Source of the DNA: an uncultured Myroides sp.
GTDB taxonomy: Bacteria; Bacteroidota; Bacteroidia; Flavobacteriales; Flavobacteriaceae
Direction of reading: 5' to 3'
Length of the DNA: 58,666 nucleotides
Assembly: GCA_913777665.1 (NCBI GenBank)
Contig: CAJYTF010000032.1
Coordinates: forward strand, 1-58,666
The notes beneath the pieces were generated by a model, which had not been told where the DNA came from, did no database searches, and saw nothing but the letters and a program-made list of their open reading frames with translations. Within the stretch, counting starts at the first letter, position 1; each line of letters opens with the position of its first letter. The position numbers and the translations under genes were made by a program. Positions 12,300 to 17,535 of the stretch are shown one piece after another.

Positions 12300-12695
12300 A
12301 TGAAACACGATGTTGAAAACAGGGAAGATTTAGAAAAATTGGTTCGATTTTTTTATGATAAGGTACGAAATGATGCAGAAATTGGTCCGATTTTTAATTC
12401 GATAATTTCCGATTGGGAACCTCATTTACAAAAGATTACCGATTTTTGGGAACAACATGTTTTCGGAGTTCAAAAGTATAAAGGAAACCCGATTGAAGCA
12501 CATAATAAGGTTGACGCCGAAACAAACCATAATGTAACGGCACACAATTTTGGAACTTGGTTGTTTTACTGGATGCAGACTTTAGACGAACTTTTTGACG
12601 GACCTAATAAGGAAGTTTTAAAGTTTAAAGCCCGTAAAATGCAAACGGTTTTCTTTGTAAATATGGTACAGGCAAGATCAAAAACCGATTCTTAA
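12300..12695 (+). CDS. group III truncated haemoglobin
   Basis: A 131-residue 2-on-2 globin of group III (trHbP/ctb type), the form usual in Bacteroidetes. The proximal haem ligand is H68 in PIEAHNKV; the B-helix aromatic region VRFFYDKV and the C-terminal helices with GTWLFYWM are visible. Such proteins bind O2 and NO and have been linked to NO tolerance or microaerobic respiration, but this role is inferred. It is divergent from ndk, and its stop overlaps by four bases with the end of the convergent DUF2971 gene. Confidence 0.88.
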   Translation: MKHDVENREDLEKLVRFFYDKVRNDAEIGPIFNSIISDWEPHLQKITDFWEQHVFGVQKYKGNPIEAHNKVDAETNHNVTAHNFGTWLFYWMQTLDELFDGPNKEVLKFKARKMQTVFFVNMVQARSKTDS

Positions 12696-13387
12696 ATCAA
12701 AATATCACTTTCTAAATCAGATTTTTCAATCAAAAATTCAAAACCTAAACGTTCAACTACTTCAATTACCAGTTTTTTGTACCAGTTTTCTGATTTTGGG
12801 TGAATATACAAACGTTCAATCATCTCGTTAACATCAATCAATACCTTAACACCTTCGTTTACGTGAAGATCTAAATGGGTAACATCTGTAATTACTCGGA
12901 CTTCGTGTTCGTACTGAAAACTTTTTCGCTTGAAAAGGAACGGAAAAAAATCATCATCAAACGGAATGTGTTCTTTTTTATAGTCGATATAATTTACCTC
13001 GCCGATAAACTGATCGGCTCTCGGTTCAATCAACGCTTTCTTTAAACTGCCGATGGTTGACTGTATCGCCAAACCTTCGTTATTCTTTGTGAAAACCTGC
13101 CACATGGCATAACTTTCGTACGAATTGGCATGCCAACTGCTTATAACAATATTCTTTCGTTTTGATTTGTAGGTATCTAAATATTCCGGGTTATCTGCTA
13201 AAAGCTTTTTAATTTCTTCGTATGTAGGTTCGCTAAAAGTTCCTTCAAACTGGTCCTCAAACTTATCAGATCGAGCCATAAACATACGTTTAGACAGCAA
13301 TAGATCCAGAAATTTAGAAAGATCTAAATACTTCCAGATTATGGTGTCGTTTTCAGGAATATGTAGTTTTTGGTTTTCTTTAAACAT
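12692..13387 (-). CDS. DUF2971 domain protein
   Basis: A 231-residue soluble protein matching the DUF2971 pattern: an N-terminal WKYLDLSKFLDLL stretch with ARSDKFEDQFEG at about residues 38-49, and a central SSWHANSYESYAMWQVF segment in the middle. DUF2971 proteins are often carried in accessory or defence-related loci but have no settled biochemistry. No signal peptide or membrane segment. Followed on the same strand (upstream side) by an unrelated secreted protein 17 bp away, so possibly co-transcribed. Confidence 0.8.
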   Translation of the reverse strand: MFKENQKLHIPENDTIIWKYLDLSKFLDLLLSKRMFMARSDKFEDQFEGTFSEPTYEEIKKLLADNPEYLDTYKSKRKNIVISSWHANSYESYAMWQVFTKNNEGLAIQSTIGSLKKALIEPRADQFIGEVNYIDYKKEHIPFDDDFFPFLFKRKSFQYEHEVRVITDVTHLDLHVNEGVKVLIDVNEMIERLYIHPKSENWYKKLVIEVVERLGFEFLIEKSDLESDILI

Positions 13388-13404: not shown

Positions 13405-14520
13405 TTAAGATTGGTCTCTTAATTCAATTTTTTTTAATTCTTCAAATAGCTCTTTCATTTCGTCAGAAAATGGATTTAAAACAATTTCTTTATTCAATTC
13501 ATTGGATATTTTAGAACTAATTTGACAGAAAATTCTATCATTTTCTTTATAAAAATTAAATTGTAATTCTTCATAATCTGTTTTTCCTAAATAAATAAAG
13601 ATTTCAGTATATGTAAGTTCTTCGCCATAGTTAATATTCAATTTATATATTCCTTTTGATTTTGGTAATGATTTAATATCTAATTCATTATTTAAAAAGA
13701 TGTTGTAAATAGTTGTATGCCAACCACCCAAACCATCAATCATTTTTATATCTAATTTTGATGGATCGATATTTTCATCAAATGAAATCGTGATTTTTTG
13801 TTTCTTTAATGCTTTTGAAATGGTATTTATTTTTTTTAAATCAATCATGTCCTTGAAAGAATCAATTGAAAATTCAAGTTTAATGTTTTCTTCTTTATTA
13901 TTTTCTTTAGAGTTTTTAAATTCTAATACTATTTTCTCATCATTTAACATTGAACTATCAAAAATTTCTATTAAATATAAAGGATTTGAATTTTCCACAC
14001 TTTTATCAATTATTTCTGCTGGTAATTTCTGTTGTTTTAATTGATTTGAATTTTTATCGAAAAGAATGATATAAAAATCATCTCCATAAAAATTTACAAA
14101 AACAACATAATCTTCATTTTGTATTAACTCATTTCCTAAATATTTAATCTTTTCGCCCGAATTTTTATCAAATAAAATATATTCAGCAGGTTGACTCCCT
14201 GATGAGGGTTTGTTGGTAATCATAAAGTAATTTTTAAATTCTTGCCAATATGTATATCCCAATCTTCCAGTAAGCTCAATTAGTTCTTTTTCCAGATCAA
14301 ACAAAATTTTACTACCTTCTTTATTTTCAAAAATCAAATATGATCCATTGCAGTCATAAGTCCAATTAATACTATTGCCATTACTGAAATAGTATTTTTC
14401 GCAATTTATGATTGAGCTTAATTCTTTTTTATCCTTACAATAGCAACTCTGACCATAACTTGTATAACTCAAAAATATAAATGAAAAAATTTTAAGTTTC
14501 AGGAAATTTCTTAAACACAT
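13405..14520 (-). CDS. secreted protein of unknown function
   Basis: Not recognised. A 371-residue protein with an N-terminal signal peptide (basic MCLRNFLKLK, then a Phe/Ile core, cut around SYGQ), after which comes a CYC cysteine pair. The mature part is rich in Lys, Glu, Asn and Ile and has repeated beta-strand-like segments, with an EELKKIEL helix near the C-terminus; no sorting domain is seen. Very AT-rich compared with its enzyme neighbours, as other lineage-specific genes in this window. Probably periplasmic or surface bound. Confidence 0.68.
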   Translation of the reverse strand: MCLRNFLKLKIFSFIFLSYTSYGQSCYCKDKKELSSIINCEKYYFSNGNSINWTYDCNGSYLIFENKEGSKILFDLEKELIELTGRLGYTYWQEFKNYFMITNKPSSGSQPAEYILFDKNSGEKIKYLGNELIQNEDYVVFVNFYGDDFYIILFDKNSNQLKQQKLPAEIIDKSVENSNPLYLIEIFDSSMLNDEKIVLEFKNSKENNKEENIKLEFSIDSFKDMIDLKKINTISKALKKQKITISFDENIDPSKLDIKMIDGLGGWHTTIYNIFLNNELDIKSLPKSKGIYKLNINYGEELTYTEIFIYLGKTDYEELQFNFYKENDRIFCQISSKISNELNKEIVLNPFSDEMKELFEELKKIELRDQS

Positions 14521-14546: not shown

Positions 14547-14759
14547 TTAATCTGTATCAGGAATATACTCTAAAATATCACTTGGCTGGCAGTTTAGTTC
14601 TTTGCAAATGGCTTCTAAAGTAGAAAAACGAATGGCTTTGGCTTTACCTGTTTTTAAAATAGATAAGTTGGCAGTTGTTATACCGATTTTGTCTGCCAGT
14701 TCTTGCGACTGCATTTTGCGTTTTGCCAGCATAACATCAAGGTTTACTATTATTGCCAT
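14547..14759 (-). CDS. small XRE-family (YozG-type) transcriptional regulator
   Basis: A 70-residue single helix-turn-helix protein. The start MAIIVNLDVMLAKRKM, the HTH ELADKIGITTANLSILK, and KAIRFSTLEAICKEL followed by CQPSDILEY are hallmarks of the small Cro/CI-like regulators that nearly always sit beside DUF2975 membrane proteins. Its start lies inside the 3' end of the serine-hydrolase gene (23-bp overlap, different frame), so translation is coupled. Likely DNA-binding repressor or activator of this cluster; whether a DUF2975 protein controls it is inference. Confidence 0.9.
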   Translation of the reverse strand: MAIIVNLDVMLAKRKMQSQELADKIGITTANLSILKTGKAKAIRFSTLEAICKELNCQPSDILEYIPDTD

Positions 14760-15846
14760 TTATTATTTTTTTTATTTGGGAAATTAACTGTTGCTGCATA
14801 TCGTAAATTGCTTTTACATGATTTTCATCGGCAGCGTTTGCAAAAATCGTGATTCCTAATTTACTTTCAGGGATTAAAATGGCGTGCGTGTAAAAAGTTC
14901 CTGTTGACCCATCGTGAAAACTCAATTTTTGGTTTCCTTGAACGGTATTTCCCCAACCATAGCTGTAATTATAAACATCAAAGTGCATTTTTTTAAAGTT
15001 TTCTGATTTTAATATACCAATTTCAGAATTATATCCTTTTAAATGCAGTTGCAACCACGCAGCATAATCGGTAATGTTCATTGATAAATCACCCGCCGAA
15101 AGCATAAAATCTTCTAACTTGTACGAATGCGTTGGCGGCAAAGCTGTTAATTCATTGTTTTCAACCCAATGACCCCAAGCATGATTCAAGTTTTTTTTGT
15201 TTGGAAATCCAAAACTGTAATCCCAATTTTGTTGCTTCATAAAATCTGCCAATAAATCTTCGTACGATTTTTTTGCCGATTTTTCAATCATCATGGCTGC
15301 CAAAACATATCCCGCGTTGGAATAGGTTCCTTTTTCTACGGTTGGTTGTGCCAAAACTTGTTGCGCAAATTCAACTCGTTTTAATTCGGTAGTCTTTGCA
15401 TCTATTTTTAATGAAAGAAATTCTTCATCTGCTGTGAAAGGCTGAACTTGGGCGTTGTGCGACAATAAATCTTTTAATGTTATGGAATGATATGCCGAGT
15501 TTTCATCATTTTTCAATTCAGGGAAAAGCGAGAAAAAAGGAGTTTCTAATGATAAATTTCCTTTTTCGATTTGTTGAAATACTAGAAATGATGTAAACGC
15601 TTTGGTGTTTGATCCTATATGAAACAAGGTTTTGTTAGTAACAGCCTCGTTGCTTTTGTTTGAAATTGTTCCGGCTGTTCCGTAAAACACGTTATCGCCA
15701 TTAATTACAGCGGCTGCCATTGCTGGAATATTATTTTCTTTTATTGATGCCTGCAACAAGCTGTCGATAACTTTGCTGTGTTGTGTATTTTGTGCTAACA
15801 TTATTGTTGTAGTTAATGTAAAACAAAGTGTGATTATTTTTTTCAT
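14737..15846 (-). CDS. class C beta-lactamase-fold serine hydrolase
   Basis: A 369-residue exported hydrolase of the beta-lactamase/D-alanine carboxypeptidase fold. Signal peptide 1-19 (cut near MLAQ). The three active-site motifs are present: SNTK (S79xxK82), YSN (Y175-N177) and HDG (H311-G313). This family includes esterases, DD-peptidases and peptide hydrolases as well as AmpC; sequence alone does not support antibiotic resistance. It is placed between the three DUF2975 genes and their XRE partner, an unusual insertion into a normally adjacent gene pair, and starts four bases after the neighbouring DUF2975 stop. Confidence 0.87.
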   Translation of the reverse strand: MKKIITLCFTLTTTIMLAQNTQHSKVIDSLLQASIKENNIPAMAAAVINGDNVFYGTAGTISNKSNEAVTNKTLFHIGSNTKAFTSFLVFQQIEKGNLSLETPFFSLFPELKNDENSAYHSITLKDLLSHNAQVQPFTADEEFLSLKIDAKTTELKRVEFAQQVLAQPTVEKGTYSNAGYVLAAMMIEKSAKKSYEDLLADFMKQQNWDYSFGFPNKKNLNHAWGHWVENNELTALPPTHSYKLEDFMLSAGDLSMNITDYAAWLQLHLKGYNSEIGILKSENFKKMHFDVYNYSYGWGNTVQGNQKLSFHDGSTGTFYTHAILIPESKLGITIFANAADENHVKAIYDMQQQLISQIKKIINGNNSKP

Positions 15847-15850
15847 GATA

Positions 15851-16363
15851 TTATATAGTTAGTTCGTTTTCTTGTTGTTGTTTTAAACCTAATTCAAAGG
15901 CTTTGCCGATTCCTAGTAAAAATAAGCCAATAATTAATTTATAAAATGTAGAAAGCATCAAATCAAAAGGATTGAAATCTTCGAACCAATTGAAATTATT
16001 ATAATTGTTTATAAGTGGAAAAATGTATTGACATAGTATATTTTCTATAAAATATAATGCAATAAAGTAATAACCAATTTGTGTAAGATAAATTGAATTC
16101 TCAATGCTGAAATAAATTTTATTTGAGAAATTAATTGATATTAATTTCATTTTTTTTACCATCACTAGAAAAATAGGAACACTTAACAATTCTATGAAAA
16201 ATGAAAATTTAAAGATGTATTCTAAGTCAAAATCTTCTTTTATTGCCTTTGTAAATACAGGTATTAGATTAAACCACAATGGTATTAAAATAAGTAACAT
16301 CAGTACAATACTTACTACTATAAAATAATATGTTACACTTAGTAAATTTTTTAATGTTTTCAT
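15851..16363 (-). CDS. DUF2975-type membrane protein (copy 3)
   Basis: A 170-residue protein with four predicted membrane segments (about residues 10-32, 50-66, 90-112, 137-157), matching the DUF2975 plan. The C-terminus is QQENELTI, the same tail as in the next two genes. It is the most distal of three tandem paralogues on the minus strand, with only three bases to the preceding copy. Function unknown. The conserved cytosolic-looking tail suggests a contact site, possibly for the XRE regulator of the cluster; that is inference. Confidence 0.78.
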   Translation of the reverse strand: MKTLKNLLSVTYYFIVVSIVLMLLILIPLWFNLIPVFTKAIKEDFDLEYIFKFSFFIELLSVPIFLVMVKKMKLISINFSNKIYFSIENSIYLTQIGYYFIALYFIENILCQYIFPLINNYNNFNWFEDFNPFDLMLSTFYKLIIGLFLLGIGKAFELGLKQQQENELTI

Positions 16364-16366
16364 AAG

Positions 16367-16888
16367 TTATATAGTTAATTCGTTTTCTTGTTTTAGTTCT
16401 ATGTTTTCTTCTTTTTGGAATTTGGCTATTTGAAACACTTTACTTAATACTAAAAAAAATAACCCAATGACTAATCCGTTTAGCGGAAAATTAAAGAAAT
16501 CTTGATATTGACCAATTTCGATTTTTATATCTTGCCTGAATAAAGGAACAATTAATGATGAGATAATATAACTTGCTATATAAATTACCCCCATGATCTT
16601 AAAGTTTTTTATAACCTGATTGGTAAATAGTTTAAATTTAATAAAGGATGAAATATTTTGTTTGAACAAATAAATTGAGTAAACATAAGCCGAATAAAAG
16701 ATAAATATGCTAAATAGCAACAAATACATAGTTACTTTGCTTTTATCTGAAAAAGTTGTTGATGTTTTAATTCCTAAATCAATTCCAAATAAAAGAAGAG
16801 TAAATACACCAAAGGTTATTATTCCTATTCCTAACATAGAATAGAAAAGTATCGTTATGATTAAATCTAATAAGCGTAATGTTCTCAT
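16367..16888 (-). CDS. DUF2975-type membrane protein (copy 2)
   Basis: A 173-residue paralogue with about four membrane segments (10-35, 50-72, 95-118, 135-157) and the shared terminal KQENELTI. The body has diverged strongly from its neighbours while the tail is kept, so the tail is under separate constraint or gene conversion. Four bases from the first copy, three from the last. Confidence 0.78.
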   Translation of the reverse strand: MRTLRLLDLIITILFYSMLGIGIITFGVFTLLLFGIDLGIKTSTTFSDKSKVTMYLLLFSIFIFYSAYVYSIYLFKQNISSFIKFKLFTNQVIKNFKIMGVIYIASYIISSLIVPLFRQDIKIEIGQYQDFFNFPLNGLVIGLFFLVLSKVFQIAKFQKEENIELKQENELTI

Positions 16889-16892
16889 AAAG

Positions 16893-17447
16893 TTATATAG
16901 TTAAGTCGTTTTCTGATTGAATTTCAATTCCTTTTTTAATAATCTGGGTAATTACCAAAAGAATAATAGCCATAAAAAACCACACATCTGCCCCCGTTAA
17001 GTTTAAAGACTCCAAACTTACTATTTTGGCACCTTGACTTGTTAACCATAAGCAGAATTGAGATCCGCAATGCGTAAACAGACCAATCCCGAATGACAAA
17101 TACGATAGTTTTAAAATGAAATCTTTTAAATGCGTATTGAATGGCTTTGTGAAATCTAATTTCTTTTCTGAAAGCAGTTTAAGAATCAAATAAAACATGA
17201 TGGCTTTTAATACGGCTATAATAATCATTACAATTGCCAGAGCTGTAAAATGATTGATATCAAACTGATAAATCGACAAAATATCTGCACCTTCCCAAAA
17301 ATTCTTCACTGCATCGGGATTAATAAACAACGTGATAAAAGTATTAACGATGATTGCACCGGCTTCTACACACAAACCAATAAAAATGATCCACGTTAGC
17401 AAAAGCAATGCTTTTAAAATATGACTTGTAGTAATTCTAATTTCCAT
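16893..17447 (-). CDS. DUF2975-type membrane protein (copy 1)
   Basis: A 184-residue member, the copy closest to the usual DUF2975 sequence: four membrane segments (about 10-35, 60-85, 105-130, 148-168), the LSEKKLDFTKPFN loop between segments 2 and 3, a GADVWFFM segment, and the tail QSENDLTI. First gene of the cluster on the minus strand, so the promoter is likely in 17448-17530. In other bacteria this family is found next to a small XRE regulator as here. Confidence 0.82.
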   Translation of the reverse strand: MEIRITTSHILKALLLLTWIIFIGLCVEAGAIIVNTFITLFINPDAVKNFWEGADILSIYQFDINHFTALAIVMIIIAVLKAIMFYLILKLLSEKKLDFTKPFNTHLKDFILKLSYLSFGIGLFTHCGSQFCLWLTSQGAKIVSLESLNLTGADVWFFMAIILLVITQIIKKGIEIQSENDLTI

Positions 17448-17535
17448 ATCTTTAAATTTTTAAATTAATGATAAAAAACATTTATTTATTGACAAAGATA
17501 TATAAATTATCGAAAAACAATAATTTTATAAATAA

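What the first reader, a model, noticed from the sequence alone, without database searches (positions are those of the whole stretch)
14547..17447. Three tandem DUF2975 proteins with one invariant tail, split from their XRE partner by a serine hydrolase
Three membrane paralogues with strongly diverged bodies all end in EN(E/D)LTI, and the DNA around each stop (TATATAGTTAA on +) is also similar. A small YozG-type XRE regulator, the normal neighbour of DUF2975, is present but separated by an exported serine hydrolase. The preserved tail on diverged bodies suggests a docking peptide, perhaps for the regulator or a protease, making a membrane sensor with three inputs and one output.
Basis: partly seen in the sequence, partly recalled or inferred. 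Interest (0 to 1): 0.7.

Follow-up and report, generated by a model that had tools for sequence, protein, structure and literature searches.

The report
Membrane-protein tail code docks a repressor
In three bacterial phyla, predicted membrane proteins of unknown function end in a short tail whose next-to-last residue changes in step with one residue of the small DNA-binding regulator encoded beside them, so the tail is likely the plug by which the membrane protein grips its own repressor.

Summary
Three diverged DUF2975 genes, a PF00144 hydrolase gene and a YozG-type XRE gene form one tight run, and all three DUF2975 proteins end EN(E/D)LTI. The docking idea now has strong support. (1) Of 285 DUF2975 proteins, 262 of 269 with an XRE gene downstream keep the tail, against 5 of 16 without. 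(2) The constraint is on protein, not DNA: the four Thr codons are used about equally. (3) Tail residue -2 covaries with XRE residue 42: Thr/Val with Ala42, Phe/Tyr/Ile/Met with Gly42, in 237 of 238 pairs. It is the top pair of 7314 inter-protein column pairs and held in 36 of 36 new pairs. On a tree, all 10 changes at residue 42 fall on branches where the tail changes, against 111 of 1672 at other XRE columns. (4) A palindrome, TTATYG-N5-CRATAA, lies upstream of these operons (0-1 mismatches in 187 of 232; shuffles 1.2); in the window it is at 17507-17523, the genome's only A/T-spacer copy. Most likely a membrane-held antirepressor circuit resembling CylR1/CylR2. Its direction and signal are untested.

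The parts
14547..14759 (-). Small XRE regulator (70 aa, HTH_26/YozG type), Ala at residue 42
   Evidence: ORF; PF13443 86.8 bits; alignment; XRE part of a relative's fused model is closest to CylR2
14622..14645 (-). XRE residues 39-46 (KAKAIRFS), loop between the recognition helix and helix 4: predicted docking site; Ala42 codon at 14634-14636
   Evidence: Covariation; an isolated bridge residue at the equivalent of residue 43 in the fused model of a relative
14737..15846 (-). Exported-looking serine hydrolase of the PF00144 family (SNTK, YSN and HDG motifs), overlapping the XRE gene by 23 bases
   Evidence: same place in L022 and L062; motifs read from the sequence, their meaning recalled
15851..16363 (-). 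DUF2975 protein D3 (170 aa)
15854..15871 (-). D3 tail ENELTI
   Evidence: PSSM
16367..16888 (-). DUF2975 protein D2 (173 aa)
16370..16387 (-). D2 tail ENELTI
16893..17447 (-). DUF2975 protein D1 (184 aa)
16896..16913 (-). D1 tail ENDLTI
17507..17523 (.). Predicted XRE operator, TTATCGAAAAACAATAA on + (TTATTG-N5-CGATAA on -), 59 bases between it and the D1 start
   Evidence: such a palindrome with 0-1 mismatches is upstream of 187 of 232 such operons
17493..17500 (-). Possible -7 element TATCTTTG (TAnnTTTG type) of the operon's promoter, close behind the operator
   Evidence: Read from the sequence; the consensus is recalled, not from a call

Best explanation
The operon encodes three DUF2975 proteins with one conserved C-terminal tail that is predicted to dock onto the small XRE regulator made by the operon's last gene, and this would pull that regulator off a palindrome that lies upstream of the operon. 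Shown by the calls: the gene order, the tail, the palindrome, the tail's dependence on an XRE partner, and the residue-for-residue covariation of tail position -2 with XRE position 42. Inferred: (a) the XRE dimer represses its own operon at the palindrome TTATYG-N5-CRATAA; (b) the tails sit on the cytosolic face and bind the XRE between the recognition helix and helix 4 (residues 28, 34, 40, 42, 46), small Thr/Val packing on Ala42 and bulky Phe/Tyr/Ile on Gly42; (c) because that surface adjoins the DNA-reading helix, docking competes with DNA binding, so the membrane proteins act as antirepressors that hold the repressor at the membrane; (d) a membrane or envelope condition changes how well each DUF2975 body presents its tail, so three bodies give three inputs to one repressor, and the output is more of the same membrane proteins and the exported hydrolase. 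The tail -2 / XRE 42 match would also keep sister systems in one genome apart.
For: Partner dependence: tail in 262 of 269 DUF2975 with XRE within 2.5 kb downstream vs 5 of 16 without (Fisher 6e-12; leaving out every gene from the XRE-first loci, which include the 71 training genes, 177 of 182, 5e-11). XRE-first sample: of 80 loci found by the XRE alone, 76 have a tail-bearing gene directly upstream; the four misses are L062 (hydrolase between, three tails further up), L101 (contig start) and L121, L132 (Band_7 gene instead). Protein-level constraint: Thr codons ACG 65, ACA 64, ACC 61, ACT 48 at -2. Covariation: T/A 207, V/A 4, F/G 12, I/G 8, Y/G 5, M/G 1, L/A 1 in 238 pairs; top of 7314 column pairs, z 10.4, with seven of the top twelve pairs involving the tail. 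New pairs: 36 of 36 fit. Tree: 10 of 10 residue-42 changes on tail-change branches vs 111 of 1672 for all other XRE columns, including a reversion (L208). Of 15 genomes that I tabulated because two systems had been seen, 11 show both classes, each operon self-matched. Copies not next to XRE keep the match: 46 of 50 T/A or V/A. Palindrome: perfect in 150 of 232 upstream regions, one mismatch in 37 more; base shuffles 0.2 and 1.0; one A/T-spacer site in the own genome; 59 of 79 DUF2975 genomes vs 29 of 217 others carry a site. Read-through fusion model of a relative: the tail leaves the helix, and its last residue and the equivalent of XRE residue 43 are both isolated bridge residues. Fold as CylR2/SinR puts 42 between the DNA-reading helix and helix 4 (fold knowledge recalled).
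Against: No experiment. Direction (antirepressor or corepressor) is not tested. The fusion model shows no partner list, has pLDDT about 70 over tail plus linker, and uses an unnatural 6-residue link; without XRE the tail is modelled as helix to residue 155 at pLDDT about 94, so the model is weak support only. Exceptions: L290 (L with A42), L052 (M with A42, tandem copy). Seven paired proteins score below the tail threshold: L204 (likely frameshift), L136 upstream copy (ends at END), L087 upstream copy (weak match, no Pfam hit), and L236, L292, L289, L290, which end in variant tails. Orphans L250 and L149 keep a palindrome but have I at -2 in genomes whose paired systems have T tails and A42. 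45 of 232 upstream regions lack a 0-1 mismatch site; 20 of 79 DUF2975 genomes lack an exact A/T-spacer site, and 32 of the 75 listed sites are not near a DUF2975 match. Covariation could in principle pass through a third partner. Sequences are related; only the branch counts guard against that.
Confidence: 0.66

Rival explanations
1. Corepressor version: the tail binds the XRE at the same place but steadies it on the operator, so the membrane proteins report their own abundance and shut their operon down (negative feedback).
For: All covariation evidence speaks at most for contact, not its sign; a palindrome upstream of the own operon with one A/T-spacer copy in the genome.
Against: The covarying surface adjoins the recognition helix, where a bound peptide would more likely get in the way of DNA (inference); the nearest characterised kind, CylR1, is required for induction (PMC3709268, passages read).
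Confidence: 0.24
2. Toxin-antitoxin-like pair: DUF2975 is a membrane-active protein and XRE its antitoxin/repressor, the tail being the antitoxin-binding element.
For: Tight two-gene pairing and a palindrome at the own promoter; Makarova et al. 2009 listed 32 Xre/YoaS-like pairs in their screen (PMC2701414, passages read).
Against: The same authors set such membrane pairs aside because no type II system with a membrane part was known; 16 of 285 DUF2975 genes have no XRE in the flank examined, though some of those genomes have an XRE elsewhere; two to four copies per XRE recur.
Confidence: 0.07
3. The tail is a degron, protease tag or PDZ-type ligand for a housekeeping factor and only happens to travel with XRE.
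For: C-terminal Leu-Thr-Ile/Val looks like a general terminal ligand (recalled).
Against: Does not explain covariation with one XRE residue (10 of 10 changes shared), nor loss of the tail together with XRE and palindrome.
Confidence: 0.03
4. The likeness is at the DNA level: recent duplication, gene conversion or a translation-coupling signal at each stop/start junction.
For: The three window junctions share GAAAACGA..TAACTATATAA, and the genes are 3-4 bases apart.
Against: Across the family the codons vary while the residues do not; tails persist when the next gene is not XRE or is far away.
Confidence: 0.03

Closest known systems
CylR1/CylR2 of Enterococcus faecalis
   Same: A membrane protein plus a small XRE repressor form a regulator pair; the XRE part of the fused model matches CylR2 best in the PDB (2xiu, 1utx, chains of 65-66 residues; E 7e-3, TM-score 0.88 on the target). 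CylR1, with three predicted membrane helices, is required for induction (PMC3709268, passages).
   Different: CylR2 controls an effector operon beside its own genes; here the palindrome is upstream of the pair's own operon. DUF2975 is modelled with four long helical stretches and has a conserved tail; kinship of DUF2975 with CylR1 was not tested. How CylR1 signals to CylR2 was described as not understood in that review.
YoaS/YozG-type pairs (DUF2975 PF11188 + HTH_26 PF13443)
   Same: This is the family itself; the pair Xre/YoaS-like (32 cases) is in Table 2 of Makarova et al. 2009 (PMC2701414, passages).
   Different: That table calls the protein 'likely permease' and sets the pair aside; in the passages read it does not mention a tail, an operator or a contact. 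That YoaS is the B. subtilis DUF2975 protein and YozG its XRE is recalled.
SdpI/SdpR and other membrane-sequestered repressors
   Same: A membrane protein takes a repressor off DNA and thereby induces its own operon (recalled, nothing read).
   Different: SdpR is an ArsR-type protein and SdpI another membrane family (recalled).

Membership tests
DUF2975 (PF11188) | Score over the curated cut-off (27 bits) and match to the model's end | tested here: met
   32.7 (D2), 29.9 (D1), 29.4 (D3) bits, all to position 130. One search gives D3 25.4, just below the cut-off.
HTH_26 (PF13443), YozG type | Score over the cut-off, full-length small XRE | tested here: met
   86.8 bits, residues 6-68; alignment to relatives 57-97% identical
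YoaS/YozG-type pair | DUF2975 and XRE in one gene run | tested here: met
   separated by one hydrolase gene, as in L022 and L062
CylR1/CylR2 kind | CylR2-like fold of the small XRE | tested here: met
   on a relative's fused model: best PDB match CylR2, though E 7e-3; SaPI2 Stl, SinR and others follow closely
CylR1/CylR2 kind | XRE represses a separate effector operon | tested here: not met
   in the own genome the only A/T-spacer site is upstream of D1, and two other N5 sites lie inside ORFs; sites that depart from the pattern would be missed
CylR1/CylR2 kind | Membrane partner homologous to CylR1 | not tested
   CylR1 sequence was not fetched
CylR1/CylR2 kind | Membrane partner needed for induction | not testable with these tools
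   Needs expression data
Type II toxin-antitoxin | Partner protein toxic when unpaired | not testable with these tools
   Only indirect: 16 of 285 DUF2975 have no XRE downstream in the flank examined

The most novel reading that the evidence does not exclude
DUF2975 and its XRE partner are a widespread, unstudied membrane-to-gene switch with a readable two-residue docking code: a free C-terminal tail plugs into the repressor beside its DNA-reading helix, Thr/Val matching Ala42 and Phe/Tyr/Ile matching Gly42. The code has flipped repeatedly, in both partners at once, and insulates two or more sister switches inside one genome, while arrays of two to four membrane proteins share one repressor.
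Probability: 0.72. Interest if true: 0.82.

Novelty: new variant of a known kind. Interest (0 to 1): 0.72.

Why it matters
DUF2975 occurs in about a quarter of the sampled Bacteroidota genomes (79 of 296) and Bacillota genomes (59 of 249); Pfam calls it a protein of unknown function, and the library held only two papers with the name (listing only). The tail code turns it into a testable signalling family. One swap experiment (tail T to F with XRE A42G) would test contact and specificity, and one EMSA the operator. It also offers a concrete guess for how CylR1-like membrane proteins may talk to their small XRE repressors, described as not understood in PMC3709268 (passages).

Tried and rejected
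Protease or serine-hydrolase link: the hydrolase has no such tail and was seen between DUF2975 and XRE in three loci only (window, L022, L062); I did not search for others. A lineage-specific passenger or effector is likelier.

DNA-level explanation of the conserved stops: disfavoured by free codon choice.

Unrelated membrane families carrying the same tail: of four candidates missed by the body HMM, L078, L137 and L138 give sub-threshold DUF2975 matches and L141 none, so no clear second family. XRE genes beside Band_7 genes (L121, L132) have no tail on that neighbour.

Wider regulon: the two other N5 sites of the own genome lie inside an 854-aa and a 596-aa ORF; in the window, matches with up to two mismatches are no more than chance gives (22 found, 29 expected).

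Fold of DUF2975: no PDB match at E below 1. Natural DUF2975-XRE fusion: none among the 120 listed of 2871 homologues.

Rows dropped: one pair with a likely frameshift (L204, gene at 2539) before the count of 238, and four pairs from L305, L309, L310, L314 added. The 285 proteins leave out about 20 tail-bearing ORFs that the body HMM missed (listed), which also sit in the control set that gave the threshold; those directly before an XRE were added to the covariation set. Of 43 loci fetched for the second test, five showed no upstream partner by the rule (37 distinct pairs counted) and four by the rule; with three repeats removed, 36 pairs were new. One search drew nearly the same genomes as and added little.
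Full report
What is there. On the minus strand, 17447 down to 14547, lie five genes with 3-4 base gaps and one 23-base overlap: D1, D2, D3 (DUF2975), an exported-looking PF00144 hydrolase and a 70-residue XRE regulator. D2 and D3 are 22% and 18% identical to D1, and all three end EN(E/D)LTI. The genome search shows no other DUF2975 match. The same kind of operon occurs in two further genomes: L022 (same neighbour, an ABC transporter; D2, D3, hydrolase, XRE; no D1) and L062 (three DUF2975, hydrolase, XRE, at a different genomic place).

Is the tail tied to XRE? I collected DUF2975 genes in Bacteroidota and Bacillota (Pfam searches; regions) and, independently, 80 loci found by the XRE alone; phylum names of the genomes follow from record titles and recall. 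In the XRE-first set, 76 of 80 loci have a tail-bearing gene directly upstream. DUF2975 was then recognised with an HMM built on bodies with the last ten residues cut off. Of 285 distinct proteins, 269 have an XRE gene within 2.5 kb downstream on the same strand and 262 of these carry the tail; of 16 without XRE, five do (the threshold is the 99th percentile of C-termini of other ORFs; the PSSM was trained on 71 of the XRE-first genes). The 16 fall into ten pure clades on a tree, so the loss is not one event. Among them, five keep a palindrome with 0-1 mismatch and four of these keep the tail; of the eleven with two or more mismatches, ten have lost the tail and the eleventh ends ENDSTG. The tail therefore tracks membership in the XRE circuit.

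Protein or DNA? In tails of paired genes the penultimate Thr uses ACG 65, ACA 64, ACC 61 and ACT 48 times, so selection is on the residue. The similar DNA at the three window stops is local.

Contact. In 238 tail-XRE pairs, tail -2 and XRE residue 42 pair as T/A 207, V/A 4, F/G 12, I/G 8, Y/G 5, M/G 1 and L/A 1; there is no T/G and no F, Y, I or M with A. Against 7314 DUF2975-column by XRE-column pairs (near-invariant XRE columns left out), with sequence weighting and background correction, this pair ranks first (z 10.4), and tail positions supply seven of the top twelve, pointing at XRE 28, 34, 40, 42 and 46. Ranks two to four pair DUF2975 body columns with XRE 17-18, which may be a second contact or background. 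The rule was then tried on a further draw of genomes, in Desulfobacterota and in a Bacillota order: 37 of 37 counted pairs fit; 36 pairs were new, all fitting (16 T/A, 15 I/G, 3 F/G, 2 Y/G). The I/G rows come mostly from one lineage, because the Bacillota query was an XRE of that lineage. On a tree of DUF2975 bodies without the tail (274 pairs, 546 branches), tail -2 changed class 11 times and XRE 42 changed 10 times, all 10 on the tail's branches; for all other XRE columns it is 111 of 1672. One change is a double reversion (L208). The first tree gave 7 of 7, and a DUF2975-plus-XRE tree 5 of 5. Of 15 genomes picked because two systems had been seen, 11 show both classes, each operon matching itself (the other four lack a second class in the de-duplicated list). 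Copies not next to XRE keep the match: 46 of 50 T/A or V/A; the rest are a truncated gene, two probable non-members and one M/A.

Structure. A fused read-through of a Ruminiclostridium pair (62-row alignment) gave mean pLDDT 88.5 and pTM 0.75. The last membrane helix ends at residue 153, three residues into the six-residue tail (151-156); residue 156 (the tail's last) and residue 205 (XRE 43) are each isolated bridge residues. That they pair with each other is my reading, since the tool lists no partners; confidence over tail and linker is about 70. The same DUF2975 alone is modelled with helix up to residue 155, pLDDT about 94. This is weak support and is told as such. The XRE part is closest to CylR2; DUF2975 has no PDB match at E below 1.

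Operator. Upstream of the first DUF2975 gene of such operons lies TTATYG-N5-CRATAA: perfect in 150 of 232 distinct upstream regions (up to 250 bases) and with one mismatch in 37 more, against 0.2 and 1.0 in base shuffles. It occurs in Bacteroidota and Bacillota alike. In the window it is 17507-17523, followed on the minus strand by TATCTTTG (17500-17493), which fits the Bacteroidota -7 consensus as I recall it. With an A/T spacer it occurs once in the own genome; two further N5 matches lie inside ORFs. Over 296 Bacteroidota genomes, 59 of 79 with DUF2975 and 29 of 217 without have an A/T-spacer site (123 sites in all), and 43 of the 75 sites that the capped list shows lie within 1.6 kb of a DUF2975 match. 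So the XRE seems to serve mainly its own operon. That the XRE binds this palindrome is inferred from its place and conservation.

Mechanism. The evidence supports contact well and autoregulation fairly. The sign of regulation is inferred: a peptide between the recognition helix and helix 4 should hinder DNA binding, and CylR1 in the nearest known kind is needed for induction (PMC3709268, passages). I therefore favour membrane capture of the repressor by the tails. What the membrane bodies sense is unknown.

Novelty. The gene pair is in print: Makarova et al. 2009, Table 2 (PMC2701414, passages). I found no account of the tail, the operator or the code in searches for DUF2975, YozG/YoaS, PF11188/COG3655/HTH_26/PF13443, and XRE with membrane antirepressor terms (listings only). 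The library lacks most subscription journals.

Noticed in passing
L310, L314, L360, L117: Longer DUF2975 relatives (307-322 aa, 8-11 predicted membrane stretches) with the tail at the end and a cognate XRE; tails RLII, QLFI and DLFI (L310, L314, L360) go with Gly42, DYTI (L117) with Ala42. Pfam was run on L117 only; the body HMM missed L310 and L360.
   Followed up: partly
L121:2600-4216 and L132:2574-4216: YozG-type XRE directly behind an SPFH/Band_7 gene in two Bacteroidales genomes that show no DUF2975 match: a possible partner switch.
   Followed up: partly
L183 (four copies), L190, L204, L067 (three or more): Arrays of three or four tandem DUF2975 genes with one XRE, nearly all with matching tails; the copy next to XRE in L204 looks frameshifted.
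   Followed up: partly
XRE residues 17-18 versus DUF2975 body columns: Covariation ranks two to four join XRE residues 17-18 to DUF2975 body columns; may be a second contact with a cytosolic loop.
   Followed up: no
window 14737-15846: The PF00144 hydrolase gene overlaps the XRE start by 23 bases in the window and in L062 and by 17 in L022, so XRE translation may be coupled to it.
   Followed up: no
window 13405-14520: 371-aa secreted-looking protein without a Pfam match, 26 bases behind the XRE stop on the same strand; a different gene follows XRE in L062.
   Followed up: no
window 12692-13387: DUF2971-like protein, just below the Pfam cut-off (21.2 vs 22 bits).
   Followed up: no
L199, L260, L261: Two DUF2975-XRE operons of opposite tail class about 5 kb apart in the same genome; in L199 (G328) both have much the same palindrome half-sites: possible cross-talk on DNA but not on the tail.
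   Followed up: no
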